A stretch of 64,000 nucleotides of DNA from Oscillospiraceae bacterium (GCA_015068645.1 SVKD01000012.1:1-64000); one strand, 5' to 3'; positions 3,527 to 10,025 are shown, numbered from the stretch's first letter. Made by a program: numbers and translations. The notes: generated by a model not told the origin, from the sequence alone.

Positions 3527-4339
3527 TTGTTTTGTAAACATTGTGCTAATCAACTGACATCTAATGACCGGATTTGCCCCGTTTGCGGCCATCCGGTAGG
3601 AGAAATTGTTTCGGTTGCTAAGAAGAAAAATCCAACCCAAGTTCTGTTGATTTTGGTGTTGGTTACTTTAATTATGGCTCTGGTTGTGGTTTCTTTGTTG
3701 ATTGTTTATAAAATCAATAGAGAGCCGTATGAACCGGGACACCAGGTCGTGATTGTGAATCCTACTCCCGAACCGACTGCAGAGGCTACTTCTACACCTA
3801 CTCCTACAGAGAGTCCTACGCCATCTCCCAGTCCTACTCCTACACCAACCGCAACACCTGCTCCCTCGCAGACGCCTACACCTACACCTATGCCAACCCC
3901 AACTTTTAATCCTGCTCCTTCACAGGAAAACGGTCCTTATCAGACGTATGTGAATCGGGAATACGGTTTTTCCTGTGTTTATCCCTCGGATTTCTATTCG
4001 ATAACGCCTCAAGGGGAGGATGCGGTGAAAACCTATATTTCGGCGGATTCCACTGCTGTGATGACCATTCGTGCAGTATGGAATACAGGAGGCTTGACAC
4101 TTGATGATGTGTATGAAGATTTTCAAAATTCATATGGTGCCAACATTACGTATCATCCCAGGGAAGAAACCTGGTATGCTGCAAAAGTTGAATGGGGAGA
4201 CCGTTCCTTCTATCGGAAGCTCTTTTTGAAAAACGGAATGATTTGCTGTATGGATTTTGAATATCAAACGAAAGATCTGGATATTTACGGACCTCATATT
4301 GAATATATTGAAGACCATTTTACCACGAAAATTGATTAA
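3527..4339 (+). CDS. Zinc-ribbon membrane protein with Pro/Thr linker and PsbP-like outer domain (paralogue 2)
   Basis: 270 residues from a TTG start with TAGGAGG nine bases upstream; no ATG is placed near this ribosome site. The zinc ribbon is C3/C6 and C17/C20, the transmembrane helix is about 39-61, and a PT-rich linker spans about 79-133. The C-terminal ~130 residues begin YVNREYGFSCVYPSDF, a pattern seen in PsbP/Mog1-like lipoprotein domains. The first ~65 residues are almost identical to those of the next gene and the outer domains are clearly related, so the two arose by tandem duplication. Repeat copy B begins directly after its stop codon. Function unknown; probably a cell-envelope protein. 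Confidence 0.75.
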   Translation: MFCKHCANQLTSNDRICPVCGHPVGEIVSVAKKKNPTQVLLILVLVTLIMALVVVSLLIVYKINREPYEPGHQVVIVNPTPEPTAEATSTPTPTESPTPSPSPTPTPTATPAPSQTPTPTPMPTPTFNPAPSQENGPYQTYVNREYGFSCVYPSDFYSITPQGEDAVKTYISADSTAVMTIRAVWNTGGLTLDDVYEDFQNSYGANITYHPREETWYAAKVEWGDRSFYRKLFLKNGMICCMDFEYQTKDLDIYGPHIEYIEDHFTTKID

Positions 4340-4536: not shown

Positions 4537-4613
4537 AAGAATGATTTATATCAAATTTCTATTGTATATTGTTTTTGAGAACGGATCATGAACATTTTTA
4601 GGAGGCGATGATT

Positions 4614-5423
4614 TTGTTTTGTAAAAATTGTGGTAATCAACTGACATCCAATGACCGAGTTTGCCCTGTTTGCGGCCATCCGGTAGGAGAAGTTGTTTCG
4701 GTTGCTAAGAAGAAAAATCCAACCCAAGTTCTGTTGATTTTGGTGTTGGTCACTTTAATTATGGCTTTGGTTGTGGTTTCTTTGTTGATTGTTTATAAAA
4801 TCAACAAAGATCCGGGTAACACCGGCGGCACCCCTGTGGTGATTGTGACGCCTACTCCCGAACCGACTGCAGAGGTTACTGCTACTCCCAGTCCGACTCC
4901 CACAGAGAGTCCTACTCCGTCTCCCAGTCCGACGCCAACGCCTACCCCGACACCTACTCCCACTCCCACGCCGACGCCTACTTCTACTCCTTCGTCTTCC
5001 CGTGAAATAGATACCTATTATACGTATACCAATAGGGAATATGGATTTGCCAGTGCATACCCCGCAAACTTCTATTCTGTGACCCCCAGCGGTGTGAATG
5101 CAGTAAAAACCTATGTGTCGGAAGATTCCACTGCCACGATGACAATCCGCGCTACTTGGAATACAAGTGGAATGTCTGTCCAGGATACTTTGGATGACTT
5201 ATATGCGGAATATGGTGGAGACGTAAACTACGAGGATCACGGCGAAACTTGGTATGCTGCAGCGGTAACAAGAGCAGGCGGAGCTCGTTCATTATACCGG
5301 AAGCTTTTTGTGAAAAACGGTATGATTTGTTGTTTGGATTTTGAATACAACATCAGCGATTACGATATTTATCAGCCTTGTCTGGAATATCTGGAAAATC
5401 ACTTTACTACGAAAATCAATTAA
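4614..5423 (+). CDS. Zinc-ribbon membrane protein with Pro/Thr linker and PsbP-like outer domain (paralogue 3)
   Basis: 269 residues if the TTG at 4614 is used. An in-frame ATG at 4608 lies only three bases after GGAGG, too close for initiation, while the TTG matches the start of paralogue 2 exactly. It has a zinc ribbon with two CxxC pairs, a transmembrane helix at about 39-61, a PT-rich linker built on near-perfect 6-base repeats, and an outer domain starting [16 protein letters not shown]. The DNA repeat in the linker could change length in frame by slippage. It is the tandem duplicate of the preceding gene. Function unknown; envelope location inferred. Confidence 0.75.
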
Positions 5424-5436
5424 GACATATCTTTAT

Positions 5437-5476
5437 AAAAAGAACGGCAATTCAGATAGAATAGCCGTTCTTTTTT
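5437..5476 (+). terminator. Intrinsic terminator at the left edge of the restriction-modification island
   Basis: GAACGGC...GCCGTTC stem with a T-run. The hairpin at 9481-9520 on the other side of the island shares the GAACGG/CCGTTC stem and the flanking AAAAG/CTTTTTT. Confidence 0.8.
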
Positions 5477-5547
5477 AGTCCTCTGTTTGATTAGAATGAA
5501 AAAAGACTACTCCGAAGAATAGTCTTTTTTACTTGGATAAGAATGCA
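5477..5547. repeat. Degenerate copy of the tRNA-Leu-associated repeat (left island border)
   Basis: AGTCCTCTGTTT (5477-5488) is identical to 9881-9892 in the right-hand repeat array. It is followed in the same order by ATTA, a GA-rich start, a terminator-type hairpin (5499-5530, GACTA/TAGTC) with a T-run, and GGATAAGA (5535-5542), matching the GGATAAGAG of the tRNA 3' end. This suggests a worn copy of the same unit on the left side of the restriction-modification genes. Confidence 0.5.
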
Positions 5548-5638
5548 TATTTTGATACAAATTGTTCTACTTGTATGACCGACTCTTTACTGACCTTCAT
5601 TTTCGAATGTGTGACCATCACTCTATTTTATGATACTT

Positions 5639-5675
5639 ATTGTATGTAGACTAATTGTATTCAAAAACATATAAT
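5639..5675 (+). promoter_or_regulatory. Promoter and candidate controller-protein operator
   Basis: A perfect TATAAT (5670-5675) has no good -35 hexamer at 16-18 bp, which fits an activator-dependent promoter. Two direct ATTGTAT repeats (5639-5645 and 5654-5660, 15 bp apart) lie just upstream and are candidate binding sites for the adjacent controller protein. Inferred, not proven. Confidence 0.4.
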
Positions 5676-5697
5676 GTATATGATGGGAGGCGTATAT

Positions 5698-5916
5698 ATG
5701 GATATAGTTAAAGTTTTCGGAAACAACTTAAAGAAATATCGTACTGCTATGAATATTTCGCAAGAATCGTTTGCTGACAAATGCGGTATGCACCGTACTT
5801 ATATCAGCGCTATTGAGTGCTACAGAAGAAGTATTTCTCTAGAGAACATTCAGCGTATTGCCGAAGCACTTGAAATCGAAACTTATAAATTATTTTTGGA
5901 GGATGAGATCAAATGA
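5698..5916 (+). CDS. XRE-family controller (C) protein of the restriction-modification system
   Basis: 72 residues from the ATG at 5698, chosen because GGGAGG lies eight bases upstream; an upstream in-frame ATG at 5674 has no ribosome site. The protein is almost entirely a helix-turn-helix: SQESFADKCGMHRTYISAIE, followed by RRSISLENIQRIAEALEIE. The HRTYIS-IE segment is typical of restriction-modification C proteins, small dimeric regulators that first activate and later repress their own promoter and so delay nuclease synthesis. The next gene starts four bases before this one ends (ATGA-type overlap), so controller and nuclease are co-transcribed and translationally coupled. Confidence 0.85.
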   Translation: MDIVKVFGNNLKKYRTAMNISQESFADKCGMHRTYISAIECYRRSISLENIQRIAEALEIETYKLFLEDEIK

Positions 5917-6644
5917 AAGAACTAATGATAGAATTAAATAATTTGCGAAAAAAGTCCAATGGCGATACCAGCATCATTAAATCCATTGAAGATGAAAAGG
6001 CACTTTTTCCTTTTAGTGTTGAAAATAGACTGTTAGCATATTACTTGGCAATAGGCGAAATTACATATGAAAGATATTCACAATTAAATACCGAGTATTG
6101 TGAGCGAAATAAATATTTGGATCTGTTTGATATGGCTCCTCGTACCTACGGGCAGACTTGGGGAGAGCAACACGTTCGCACACTATTTCCGCAGTTTGTA
6201 AAAGCAACTAAAGAAAATGTTTCTGCAGAGTACCCTGCATTTGATGGTGAATTTGATTTATGGCTTGACGGAATTCGTATTGAAGTAAAAGCCTGTCGTG
6301 CAAACAGCACAAACGCAGGTGGCAGTTTAGCAAGCAGAGCGTATTTACATTCCGAAGCAAAAGCTGCTGGATTCAAGTATCACTATCAGCAGTTAAAACC
6401 TGCTTGTTGCGATGTTTTCATTTGGATCGGTACTTGCCGTGACGAATTGATTTATTGGGTTCTCACAAGCGAGGAACTTCAAAGAACTGGAAAACTTGGT
6501 CCCCAGCATCGTAACGAAAATACGGGTATTGCAGGTGTTGAAGTGTTTGAAGGACAAGTTTTTATGACCGAAGAAGAATTATCTCCATTTCTGGTTGACG
6601 AAAAAGATATTTTAGAAATTGTTCGTCGAAAAGGTAAAAAATAA
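5913..6644 (+). CDS. Type II restriction endonuclease candidate (PD-(D/E)XK fold)
   Basis: 243 residues, overlapping the controller gene. The central motif is FDGEFDLWLDG followed by IRIEVKACR, giving acidic residues D111/D115 and the E124-V-K126 pair of a PD-(D/E)XK metal-dependent nuclease core. The C-terminal part has a DVFIWIGTC beta strand and a basic tail. I do not recognise the exact specificity family. Genetic context (controller protein upstream, DNA adenine methyltransferase on the opposite strand) makes it the main candidate for the DNA-cleaving subunit. The island is more AT-rich than the neighbouring genes, which fits horizontal transfer. Confidence 0.7.
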   Translation: MKELMIELNNLRKKSNGDTSIIKSIEDEKALFPFSVENRLLAYYLAIGEITYERYSQLNTEYCERNKYLDLFDMAPRTYGQTWGEQHVRTLFPQFVKATKENVSAEYPAFDGEFDLWLDGIRIEVKACRANSTNAGGSLASRAYLHSEAKAAGFKYHYQQLKPACCDVFIWIGTCRDELIYWVLTSEELQRTGKLGPQHRNENTGIAGVEVFEGQVFMTEEELSPFLVDEKDILEIVRRKGKK

Positions 6645-6668
6645 GTATTTTTTAAAAGGAGTTGTTGT

Positions 6669-7211
6669 ATGGCAGATAAAAAGAAACTTGAGCAATTCAT
6701 AAATGGCATATTTAGTTTGGGTACAAATTTCGGTGAACTCGCCCAGTTAATGATTAAGGAGTTGGAGAAATTCACTCCGGCAGATGGGAAGTATTTTGAC
6801 CTGTTGGATTCAAAAAACCAAAAGATAGAAGCGAAGTTCTCACGAGCTAAGAAAAAACTCAAACCGCTGAAAAAATCTAATATAATTGACCTTTGTTTGA
6901 ATTCCGCATCGGATTCAAGGGTTTTGACTGAAGCTGAGGCTACGAATATAACATTCGATTGCAACATACAACAAATCAAACCCTCCGAATTCGATATTCT
7001 TTACTACGGAATCTTTTTCAAAGATAAAATTGTAATCTTCAAAGCTCAAAGCGACATTGTCCCTAATATGCCCGGATATTCAATTCAGCACAAAGGTGGT
7101 ACTGAGTATCAATTCCATATAAACAAATCAAACTATGCCGAACATAAAAAGAAGTATTTTCATAAGGAATTAACCTACTCTCAACTACTTGCATTATTTG
7201 AGAAAAAATAA
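6669..7211 (+). CDS. Second nuclease-like protein of the restriction-modification locus (unrecognised)
   Basis: 180 residues starting at ATG after AAAAGGAG. The segment YFDLLDSKNQ followed by KIEAKFSRA has the spacing of a PD-(D/E)XK core (D44/D47, then E54-A-K56), preceded by an acidic helix (ELAQLMIKELE). A second strand-like stretch is EFDILYYGIFF. It is 24 bases behind the first nuclease and in the same operon, and its last 18 bases overlap the 3' end of the convergent methyltransferase gene. It may be a second endonuclease subunit, a nicking partner, or the true endonuclease with the upstream gene as an accessory. I do not recognise the family by name. Confidence 0.6.
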   Translation: MADKKKLEQFINGIFSLGTNFGELAQLMIKELEKFTPADGKYFDLLDSKNQKIEAKFSRAKKKLKPLKKSNIIDLCLNSASDSRVLTEAEATNITFDCNIQQIKPSEFDILYYGIFFKDKIVIFKAQSDIVPNMPGYSIQHKGGTEYQFHINKSNYAEHKKKYFHKELTYSQLLALFEKK

Positions 7212-9374
7212 ATTCTTTCCAGATAATGCCCCACGAATAGTTTTTCTCTGTATCTCTGAAAGAGAATAAATACTCATAATTTCATTATCAAGATCTTCAT
7301 ATAGACCACTAATGTTTTCGCTTGAATTCATTATGTGGTCTACTTTTTTTATAATACCACTCTGTTTTTCAGTACTTACCATGGGGATCGGTAACGATTC
7401 TATGTGTGATCTCAGCAACTTAACAGAATTGTATTTTTTGTTTAAAAAGAAAGCTGCTACACTAGAATTCAAAATTGCCAAAATGTACTTTATATCCATA
7501 CCTTCAATCTGTGGTATTAAGATGTTGCAACTGTTCAACGAAAGCGTTTGTTGATTATCATACATAAAAACAGGCACTTCAGCAATGAATCTATACAATA
7601 ACTTTTCTTTAGCTCGATACATTTCAGTTGACGCAACTTGCTGAAATTTTTCAGGCGCAAAATAAATATAGTTATCGGTTTCCTTCATAGCATATCTAAA
7701 AATATCACTACCTTTTAAAACAATTTCCATTCCTTCTGTTTTTTCATTTGTGATATACTCCTTATTGTTACCGGTGACAATTCCCAATGCAAACTTAGCG
7801 TTATTTGCAAGATATTTAGCGTTTTTTAATGAGCCAATCACTTGTAAACAATCGTATTCTTCATCGCTCATGTTAAAAGAGAACGATGTTGCATTTATAT
7901 CTCTGTTTTCATTAATAACGAATTCTTTATTATTCAGTTCAATTCTGCAACCTTTCGTTTCTCCGCAACAACCTTTCTGAATGCCTAAGATGATCGCAGG
8001 ACATTGCACTCCCGAAAAAGCATTCCCCAAGTAACTCACAAATTTAAACGCCGTGTTTTTTACAATAAGTTCTCTTGCCTGCTGATGTGAGTTTACACTT
8101 AAAATCGCTTCTGGCAATACGTATGCTAAGTACCCATTTTCTTCTATCATTGCCATTCCTTTTTCAATAAACAAATCGTATGACTCCATACCTTTGTTTT
8201 TAGCAGTAGTATAATTAGCAGTAAGATAAGCGGTTTCTTCTTTGCTAAAATCATATCCCCAAGGTGGATTGCCCAATACTACAGAGAACTTACGAGAGAA
8301 AGTATTGGAAAGGGTATCGCCACAAACAAATTGAGAATACAACTGCTCTCTAGTAATGCTGTTATCATGCAAAAACATATTGATTCGTGTAATTAGAATA
8401 CTAACTTCATCTATGTCTTGACCATAAAGATTCTCAATTCCCACACCTTTTTCAACAAGACCGATAAGGAAATTTCCCGTTCCACAGCAAGGATCACATA
8501 ATGTCTTGTTTTGAGTATTAACATAGTTTTTCAAATTGCAAATAAGCGTATTAACCGTTTTTTGGGGTGTGTAATATGCACCGGTTTGTTTACGATGACT
8601 TAAATCTCGAAGGGAAATGTAAACAAATCCCAAAGTATCTTCTAATGGAACTAACTGAACTTTACTATTCAAAGCGGTTTGAATATTTGCAATCGTAATT
8701 TTTGATACATCAATATTCCCAAGCAAGTCTTTAATCAAACTATTGAATACATCATTACTTGTAATATCACTTTTTCCTTCAAGTAACAAATAATCTGATA
8801 CAACTATCCCTCCGCTTTGTTGATATAATTGTATGGCAAAATTAGCGAGAATCACTCTCAATTCATCTTCTGTAATTTGGTCACAAGAATTCAAAATACT
8901 TTCAACAATTTCACGATTATGATTGTTTTTGATGTAATCTTTGTATAGGACTTTGCCACTTACACTTTTTTTGTTCCTTCGACTTTTCAAACGGTTATCT
9001 TTTCCGATTCTTATTTCTGAGATAAGTGCTTCTATATATTTCTTATCAAAAGTTTCGCTATCAGACTCAATCTTCAGTTTTCCGAGTCTAACCCAGTTTT
9101 TGACAGTTGCTGGAGAAATAGAAAGCAGCTCACAAACTTGAGCAATACTTAATTTTTCTTCTTCAATTTTATAAAGATCATCAAATAATGATAATTGATT
9201 TTCAGGCACAGTGCTTTTTATTCGTGCATCAGTAGGTTTTTGGGCATTGGTAGGAATTAACCATACACCACTCATTCTATTAGCGCCTTCAATACGTCCT
9301 TGTTCGCACAATATCTGAACTCTTCTTTTAGATATATTAAATTTTTCTGCAGCATCAGAAACCGATATATACAT
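7194..9374 (-). CDS. Adenine-specific DNA methyltransferase with two N-terminal helix-turn-helix motifs
   Basis: About 726 residues from the ATG at 9374, preceded by GAGGTG; the ATG at 9398 lacks a ribosome site and lies near the predicted transcript start. Residues 1-45 (MYISVSDAAEKFNISKRRV) and about 75-103 (LSIAQVCELLSISPATVKNWV) are two MerR/excisionase-type helix-turn-helix motifs. The catalytic part has motif I DPCCGTGNFLIG (about 290-300) and motif IV NPPW (about 370), typical of gamma-class N6-adenine methyltransferases, followed by a long target-recognition region with QTGAYYTP before motif I. It should protect host DNA from the facing nuclease genes. Its promoter is near-perfect, unlike that of the nuclease operon. 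Confidence 0.88.
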   Translation of the reverse strand: MYISVSDAAEKFNISKRRVQILCEQGRIEGANRMSGVWLIPTNAQKPTDARIKSTVPENQLSLFDDLYKIEEEKLSIAQVCELLSISPATVKNWVRLGKLKIESDSETFDKKYIEALISEIRIGKDNRLKSRRNKKSVSGKVLYKDYIKNNHNREIVESILNSCDQITEDELRVILANFAIQLYQQSGGIVVSDYLLLEGKSDITSNDVFNSLIKDLLGNIDVSKITIANIQTALNSKVQLVPLEDTLGFVYISLRDLSHRKQTGAYYTPQKTVNTLICNLKNYVNTQNKTLCDPCCGTGNFLIGLVEKGVGIENLYGQDIDEVSILITRINMFLHDNSITREQLYSQFVCGDTLSNTFSRKFSVVLGNPPWGYDFSKEETAYLTANYTTAKNKGMESYDLFIEKGMAMIEENGYLAYVLPEAILSVNSHQQARELIVKNTAFKFVSYLGNAFSGVQCPAIILGIQKGCCGETKGCRIELNNKEFVINENRDINATSFSFNMSDEEYDCLQVIGSLKNAKYLANNAKFALGIVTGNNKEYITNEKTEGMEIVLKGSDIFRYAMKETDNYIYFAPEKFQQVASTEMYRAKEKLLYRFIAEVPVFMYDNQQTLSLNSCNILIPQIEGMDIKYILAILNSSVAAFFLNKKYNSVKLLRSHIESLPIPMVSTEKQSGIIKKVDHIMNSSENISGLYEDLDNEIMSIYSLSEIQRKTIRGALSGKNLFFLK

Positions 9375-9480: not shown

Positions 9481-9520
9481 AAAAGAACGGCTATTAGTAT
9501 CAAAATAACCGTTCTTTTTT
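9481..9520 (+). terminator. Intrinsic terminator-like hairpin at the right island border
   Basis: GAACGG...CCGTTC stem with T-run (and an A-rich 5' side, so usable in both directions). It resembles the hairpin at 5437-5476. Confidence 0.7.
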
Positions 9521-9939
9521 GGTGCGGATAAGAGGACGCAGTTGTGCTTCGCACACCTTCTCAGCTTAGCGACCCAAAGGCGATGCCTTTCGGTACCCGC
9601 CTGCGCCCCGGCTTCGCTAAAAACCATTCCCCGAATGGTTTTCTAACGCTTGCCGCCTTCTTAAGGTTCAAGTCCTCTATTTTATTATACGAAAAAAAGA
9701 AGCTATCCGAAATGGATAACTTCTTTTTTGGTGCGGATAAGAGGACACAGTTGTGCTTCGCACACCTTTTCAGCTTGGCGACCCAAAGGCGATGCCTTTC
9801 GGTACCCGCCTGCGCCCCGGCTTCGCTAAAAACCATTCCCCGAATGGTTTTTCTAACGATTGCCGCCTTCTTAAGGTTCAAGTCCTCTGTTTTATTATAC
9901 GAAAAAAAGAAGCTATCCGAAATGGATAACTTCTTTTTT
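9521..9939. repeat. Two tandem ~210-bp repeats derived from the tRNA-Leu 3' end
   Basis: Two units (9521-9729, 209 bp; 9730-9939, 210 bp), nearly identical, with the start of a third formed by the real tRNA gene. Each unit begins with the last ~17 bases of the tRNA-Leu gene (GGTGCGGATAAGAGGAC on plus). It then carries hairpins (GTTGTGCTTCGCACACC; AAAGGCGATGCCTTT; AAACCATTCCCCGAATGGTTT), an inverted T-arm piece AGGTTCAAGTCCTCT, and a terminator hairpin GAAGCTATCC/GGATAACTTC. No credible gene lies in 9399-9938; the frames there are read-through artefacts. Confidence 0.85.
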
Positions 9940-10025
9940 GGTGCGGATAAGAGGACTTGAACCTCCACCGAGTTGCCCCGACTAGCACCTGAAGCTAGCG
10001 CGTCTGCCGATTCCGCCATATCCGC
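9939..10025 (-). tRNA. tRNA-Leu (anticodon CAG)
   Basis: 87 bases with encoded CCA (9941-9939). The acceptor stem GCGGATA/TATCCGC, a D-arm, the anticodon stem CTAGC/GCTAG with loop TTCAGGT giving anticodon CAG, a long class-II variable arm and the T-loop GTTCAAG are all visible. It reads CTG leucine codons. The 3' end is the site from which the adjacent tandem repeats derive, and tRNA 3' ends are common integration targets. A terminator hairpin follows on the minus strand (9938-9900). Confidence 0.95.

What the first reader, a model, noticed from the sequence alone, without database searches (positions are those of the whole stretch)
5698..9374. Restriction-modification locus with two nuclease-like proteins and one methyltransferase
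A controller protein and two successive genes each with a PD-(D/E)XK-like motif face a single adenine methyltransferase. Two nuclease-like subunits with one methyltransferase could form a heterodimeric or nicking-type enzyme, or the 180-residue protein may be an unusual endonuclease in its own right. I recognise neither nuclease family.
Basis: partly seen in the sequence, partly recalled or inferred. Interest (0 to 1): 0.62.

Follow-up and report, generated by a model that had tools for sequence, protein, structure and literature searches.

The report
Two-subunit restriction enzyme, one methyltransferase
A gut bacterium carries a DNA-cutting defence system whose scissors seem to be built from two different, distantly related half-enzymes that elsewhere each work without the other, all protected by one DNA-marking enzyme, which gives a natural example of how a single-subunit enzyme becomes a two-subunit one.

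Summary
The locus is a Type II restriction-modification system: controller C (with C-boxes) - R1 (243 aa) - R2 (180 aa), convergent with one N6-adenine methyltransferase, M. R1 and R2 are homologous (profile comparison 98.1%, E 9e-14), both keep D...ExK, and both are predicted to have the same PvuII/BisI-like PD-(D/E)XK fold. Each type occurs elsewhere as the only nuclease beside a methyltransferase, with an invariant QHRGNxGEGQ-like hairpin. The pair (C-R1-R2-M) recurs in other genomes with both nucleases under strong purifying selection (dN/dS about 0.04-0.18). In the pair only, DNA-contacting elements changed: R2 lost the TRR linker arginines and two hairpin glycines; R1's hairpin gained 7 residues. 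A tree makes R1 and R2 two old lineages brought together, not a local duplication. Most likely they form an obligate heterodimer (or alpha2-beta2). Because a single M serves them, and its recognition domain is unusually similar to those of single-nuclease relatives, I favour a palindromic or near-palindromic site. This is not a standard Type IIT system, which has two methyltransferases. Heterodimerisation, DNA target and activities are inferred, not shown. New variant of a known kind.

The parts
5635..5658 (+). C-boxes: ACTTATTGT - ATGTAG - ACTAATTGT, operator of the C-R1-R2 operon; TATAAT -10-like element at 5670-5675
   Evidence: 18-base core identical in window, L003, L006 and L025; resembles the Esp1396I OL/OR operators GACTTATAGTC...GATTATAGTC (PMC3758141)
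5698..5916 (+). C: controller protein (HTH_3), 72 aa from the ATG at 5698 (GGGAGG upstream)
   Evidence: HTH_3 1.7e-14; PADLOC Control_protein 2.5e-21; its end overlaps the R1 start (ATGA)
5913..6644 (+). R1: 243-aa nuclease subunit, D115..E124-x-K126, hairpin QHRNENTGIAGVEVFEGQ
   Evidence: PADLOC REase_II PDLC03414 9e-33; AF2 pLDDT 89.3, pTM 0.83; NhoI Z 10.2; dN/dS 0.05-0.07
6669..7211 (+). R2: 180-aa nuclease subunit, D44..E54-x-K56, linker TNFGE, hairpin IQHKGGTEYQF
   Evidence: PDLC03414 9.6e-9; AF2 pLDDT about 90 over most of it; NhoI Z 11.6; dN/dS 0.04-0.18
7194..9374 (-). M: N6-adenine DNA methyltransferase, two N-terminal HTH_17 stretches + N6_Mtase + TaqI_C recognition domain; likely start 9374 (MYISVSDAA), ORF open from 9398; 3' end overlaps R2 by 18 bases
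   Evidence: TaqI_C 4.7e-25, N6_Mtase 1e-24; PADLOC MTase_II 3.5e-131; orthologues in L004 and L006 begin at MYI

Best explanation
A C-protein-controlled Type II restriction-modification system whose endonuclease is an obligate two-subunit enzyme. R1 and R2 each supply one PD-(D/E)XK catalytic site and one half of the DNA-reading surface, and pair across the PvuII/BisI-type dimer interface as R1:R2 (or an alpha2-beta2 tetramer). One N6-adenine methyltransferase protects the site on both strands, so the site is probably palindromic or nearly so. The subunits descend from two anciently separate single-nuclease lineages of one family. R1 joined an R2-type system that already had this M, and both subunits then changed their linker/hairpin DNA-contact elements. 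C delays R1/R2 expression until M has protected the genome. Shown: gene content, homology, motifs, predicted folds, recurrence, purifying selection, pair-specific changes, phylogeny, conserved C-boxes. Inferred: heterodimerisation, joint recognition, palindromic site, cleavage, timing.
For: R1 and R2 homology: hhalign 98.1%, E 9e-14; both match PDLC03414. The pair arrangement recurs in L003, L004 and L006, and in L005 as far as the contig reaches. Both genes are under purifying selection. Stand-alone relatives: R2-type beside one MTase in many loci, R1-type in L024 and L037. Of 56 columns conserved in 23 stand-alone R2 proteins, 8 changed in all pair R2s. Seven of these lie in alpha0, the alpha0-alpha1 linker, the alpha1 Glu and the hairpin, which in NhoI/Eco15I are dimer, minor-groove, catalytic and DNA-closing elements (PMC11347163). 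R1's hairpin is longer by 7 residues. Tree: pair R1 100/100 next to R1-alone, pair R2 100/100 inside R2-alone on a long stem. Pair M lies among R2-alone Ms, with TRD identity 54-64% against 40-45% in the catalytic domain.
Against: No direct evidence that R1 and R2 bind each other: the fused R1-R2 model had pTM 0.48 and a poor R1 half, so the interface is untested. R1-alone samples are few (two full copies, one partial). Two of the pair-type loci have a broken or missing nuclease (L025: R1 stop codon, no R2; L006: R2 frameshift, possibly an assembly error). R2 carries E26Q at the alpha1 Glu position, though R1-alone proteins also have Gln there by alignment. A heterodimer on a symmetric site has no obvious advantage.
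Confidence: 0.68

Rival explanations
1. R1 and R2 are two separate homodimeric endonucleases that cut the same (or overlapping) site and share one methyltransferase; the second gives redundancy.
For: Each type exists as the only nuclease beside a related methyltransferase elsewhere; M recognition domains of the whole family are similar; both active sites are intact.
Against: In the pair both proteins lost or reshaped the hairpin/linker residues that are otherwise invariant in stand-alone enzymes, which is not expected if each still had to read the whole site alone.
Confidence: 0.15
2. Only one subunit recognises and cuts; the other is a helper that cuts the second strand or tunes specificity (as the small subunits of BtsI/BspD6I do), so loss of one gene would leave a nickase.
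For: R2 is smaller (180 aa), lacks R1's N-terminal helical extension and has E26Q; unequal subunits are known in BtsI, BsrDI and BspD6I (PMC4081073).
Against: R2's stand-alone cousins of the same size are the sole nuclease of their systems, so small size does not mean lack of recognition; D, ExK, QQxK, QH and E..Q are kept in both.
Confidence: 0.13
3. A decaying system: R2 or R1 is a leftover with no present function.
For: L025 and L006 carry broken nuclease genes.
Against: dN/dS of 0.04-0.18 for both genes among window, L003, L004 and L005; full-length open frames in the window.
Confidence: 0.04

Closest known systems
Type IIT enzymes BbvCI / Bpu10I
   Same: Two different homologous PD-(D/E)XK subunits encoded side by side, each with its own catalytic site (PMC6326814, PMC4081073).
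   Different: BbvCI/Bpu10I read asymmetric 7-bp sites, and Type IIT systems generally have two methyltransferases or a fused pair; here there is one single-domain M. No PDB chain matched either profile below E 0.05.
BslI (alpha2-beta2, CCN7GG)
   Same: Two different nuclease subunits serving a palindromic site ('unusual Type IIP', PMC4081073) is the arrangement proposed here.
   Different: BslI is reported as zinc-dependent with Cys4 motifs; sequence relatedness could not be tested, and the target here is unknown.
PvuII and the BisI family (NhoI, Eco15I)
   Same: Same predicted core fold: R2 Z 11.6, R1 Z 10.2 to NhoI 8q5n_A; small dimeric nucleases without extra domains.
   Different: BisI enzymes cut methylated DNA, use QxK and are homodimers; these have ExK and sit beside a methyltransferase, so they should be blocked by methylation rather than need it.
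PADLOC REase_II family PDLC03414 and stand-alone R2-type REases
   Same: R1 and R2 are members by sequence and share the methyltransferase type.
   Different: Those are one nuclease with one methyltransferase and keep the QHRGNxGEGQ-like hairpin; here two diverged members are paired.

Membership tests
Type II restriction-modification system | separate endonuclease and cognate methyltransferase genes side by side | tested here: met
   PADLOC REase_II and MTase_II hits on adjacent genes
C-protein-controlled R-M system | small HTH controller ahead of R with C-box operator | tested here: met
   HTH_3/Control_protein hits; conserved C-boxes. Binding not tested
Type IIT | two different catalytic sites in two subunits/domains | tested here: met
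   D..ExK in both R1 and R2, same fold; activity not tested
Type IIT | accompanied by two methyltransferases or a fused pair (general, not absolute) | tested here: not met
   one MTase domain, one catalytic motif (NPPW); no second MTase ORF in the window or seen in the L003-L006 pair loci
Type IIT | recognises an asymmetric site | not testable with these tools
   site unknown; avoidance analysis gave no candidate
PvuII/BisI structural family | PvuII-like PD-(D/E)XK fold | tested here: met
   NhoI is the top hit for both models, ahead of PvuII and EcoRV
BisI modification-dependent enzymes | QxK active site | tested here: not met
   IEVK/IEAK in R1/R2
BisI modification-dependent enzymes | cleavage requires methylated cytosines | not testable with these tools
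   needs assay; the partner N6A methyltransferase argues against
BslI-like two-subunit Type IIP | alpha2-beta2 assembly on a palindrome | not testable with these tools
   single M is consistent; no structural or target data

The most novel reading that the evidence does not exclude
An obligate heterodimer assembled from two anciently separate single-nuclease (presumably homodimeric) PvuII-like restriction enzymes, still reading an essentially symmetric site guarded by one methyltransferase: a natural case of homodimer-to-heterodimer evolution in a restriction enzyme, with both single-subunit relatives still living.
Probability: 0.4. Interest if true: 0.6.

Novelty: new variant of a known kind. 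Interest (0 to 1): 0.42.

Why it matters
Two-subunit Type II enzymes are few, and the well-studied ones read asymmetric sites with two methyltransferases. Here single-nuclease relatives of each subunit exist in living genomes, so the steps from one-subunit to two-subunit enzyme (lost linker arginines and shortened hairpin in R2, lengthened hairpin in R1) can be reversed or swapped and tested directly. If the enzyme works as proposed, mutating one catalytic site would also give new strand-specific nicking enzymes of very small size.

Tried and rejected
Pfam, NCBIfam and PHROGs gave no significant family for R1 or R2; PDB sequence searches with single proteins and profiles gave nothing useful. 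Plasmid and phage records: R1 none, R2 one 31% plasmid hit; R1-type L024 protein none in plasmids or viral contigs; window R1 none in viral contigs. A fused R1-R2 model (reading the TAA between the genes as a residue) was tried to see the interface, but the R1 half was poor (pTM 0.48), so no interface is claimed. Palindrome avoidance in about 457 kb of the host genome against two congeners gave no host-specific avoided site that stands out. Local tandem duplication of R1/R2 rejected by the tree. A dead partner rejected by dN/dS. A two-methyltransferase arrangement looked for and not found. I recognised no characterised REBASE enzyme in this family, and REBASE itself could not be searched.

Full report
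What is there. The window holds C (5698-5916 +), R1 (5913-6644 +), R2 (6669-7211 +) and M (7194-9374 -, ORF open from 9398). C overlaps R1 by an ATGA, R2 follows R1 after 24 bases with a good ribosome site, and M runs convergently, overlapping the R2 end by 18 bases. C is a controller protein (HTH_3 1.7e-14; PADLOC Control_protein 2.5e-21). Upstream of it, at 5635-5658, lie two boxes ACTTATTGT-ATGTAG-ACTAATTGT whose core is identical in L003, L006 and L025 although the rest of the upstream DNA is not. They resemble the Esp1396I operators (PMC3758141). M has one N6_Mtase/Eco57I domain and a TaqI_C recognition domain and scores 3.5e-131 to a PADLOC Type II methyltransferase. No second amino-methyltransferase motif was found in the longer ORFs of the window.

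The two nucleases. R1 and R2 both match one PADLOC Type II restriction enzyme model, PDLC03414 (9e-33 and 9.6e-9). Profile-profile comparison of the R2 family with the R1 family gives 98.1% probability, E 9e-14 over 130 columns. Over 28 members of both kinds the invariant residues, in R1 numbering, are D115, E124, K126, F154, Q159, Q160, K162, D177, E213 and Q215. All have counterparts in window R2, and the QH dipeptide is also invariant. AlphaFold gives R1 at pLDDT 89.3, pTM 0.83 and the R2 half of a fused construct at about pLDDT 90 over most of its length. The nearest solved structure for both is NhoI of the BisI family, a PvuII relative (R2 Z 11.6, rmsd 2.9 A, 122 residues; R1 Z 10.2, rmsd 3.6 A, 122 residues). 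So the 180-residue protein has a nuclease fold.

The relatives. The 180-aa type is common as the only nuclease beside one methyltransferase (L007-L009, L011, L012, L014, L016, L020, L022, L028, L029). It also occurs in viral contigs, beside a different methyltransferase (L030-L034). R1-type proteins also occur without R2 (L024, L037; L036 partial), again with a relative of M next to or upstream of them. The pair C-R1-R2-M recurs in L003, L004 and L006 (R2 with a frameshift) and, cut off by the contig end, L005. In G245 (L025) R2 is missing and R1 has an in-frame TAG. Between pair copies, dN/dS is 0.05-0.07 for R1, 0.04-0.18 for R2 and 0.06-0.13 for M (pairs with saturated dS left out): both nucleases are maintained.

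What is special in the pair. Stand-alone R2 proteins share TRRFG, then D..ExK, FDCNIQQIK and QHRGNxGEGQFHI. All pair R2 proteins instead have TNFGE and IQHKGGxEYQFHI. Of 56 columns conserved (85% or more) in 23 stand-alone R2 proteins, eight are changed in every pair R2: R11, R19 (deleted), R20N, E26Q, I67L, N144G, G145 (deleted), G147Y. Seven of the eight lie in the N-terminal helix, the linker after it, the catalytic-helix Glu and the beta-hairpin. In the NhoI/Eco15I structures the corresponding elements make the dimer contact, touch the minor groove, help bind the metal, and close the channel over the DNA (PMC11347163); the mapping onto our proteins is by sequence order and secondary structure, hence inferred. 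In R1 the same hairpin is QHRNENTGxAGxxVFEGQ against QHRGNVGEGQ in stand-alone R1 proteins, a 7-residue gain. Both partners therefore changed their DNA-reading parts in opposite directions, as expected if they now read the site together.

History. In a joint tree pair R1s form one clade (100/100) joined to R1-alone proteins, and pair R2s one clade (100/100) within R2-alone proteins, on stems of 2.3 and 1.2 changes per column against about 0.05-0.2 at their tips. The two subunits are old lineages brought together, not a local duplication. Pair Ms form one clade among Ms of R2-alone systems, and their recognition domain is more similar to those (54-64%) than the catalytic domain is (40-45%). Usually the recognition domain diverges faster, so the target is probably the same or close. 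One single-domain M that protects a site on both strands, and R2-alone enzymes that presumably act as homodimers, both point to a palindromic or near-palindromic site; this is inference.

How it most likely works. M methylates adenines in the site on both strands. C builds up from its own promoter, binds the C-boxes and turns up C-R1-R2 once M has acted. R1 and R2 pair and cut unmethylated incoming DNA, one strand per active site. Heterodimer formation, target and cleavage were not shown. The best model for comparison is BslI (two kinds of subunit, palindromic site) rather than BbvCI, because Type IIT systems generally carry two methyltransferases (PMC4081073).

Setting. Just beyond M lie partial tRNA-containing repeats and a tRNA-Leu (9939-10025 -), then nth. 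In congeners the stretch next to nth holds other content, including Type I R-M genes (L103, L105), and no C-R1-R2-M. The locus therefore sits in a variable defence hotspot and was probably acquired.

Verdict. Ordinary in kind (Type II R-M), unusual in build.

Noticed in passing
window 9504-10025 and the same place in L103, L104, L105: The tRNA-Leu (cag)/nth junction is a variable hotspot in this genus: congeners carry Type I R-M genes and a 554-aa recombinase-like ORF (L103, L105) or other genes (L104) there instead of C-R1-R2-M.
   Followed up: partly
window 9512-9956 and 5460-5506: Two tandem copies of about 210 bp next to the tRNA-Leu 3' end; 20-30 nt of the same repeat also lies on the other side of the R-M locus (5460-5506), so the locus is flanked by related direct repeats.
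   Followed up: partly
L030-L034 (viral contigs), around 4989-6300: Viral contigs carry an R2-type restriction enzyme whose end overlaps a DPPY-type DNA methyltransferase, i.e. a complete small R-M system, next to topoisomerase-like genes.
   Followed up: no
L010 1527-4329: Two R2-type genes, the second truncated at its start, separated by a transposase and sharing one methyltransferase.
   Followed up: no
L019 4238-5543, L021 4995-6284, L023: The same R2-type nuclease is paired with a different class of methyltransferase (DPPY/IPYG-type), so partners have been swapped in this family.
   Followed up: no
window 3527-4339 and 4608-5423: Tandemly duplicated zinc-ribbon, single-pass membrane proteins with a low-complexity P/T-rich linker (first 203 nt 94% identical).
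   Followed up: no
window 7194-9374, residues 1-110 of M: M carries two N-terminal excisionase-like HTH_17 stretches, which may let it regulate its own gene.
   Followed up: no
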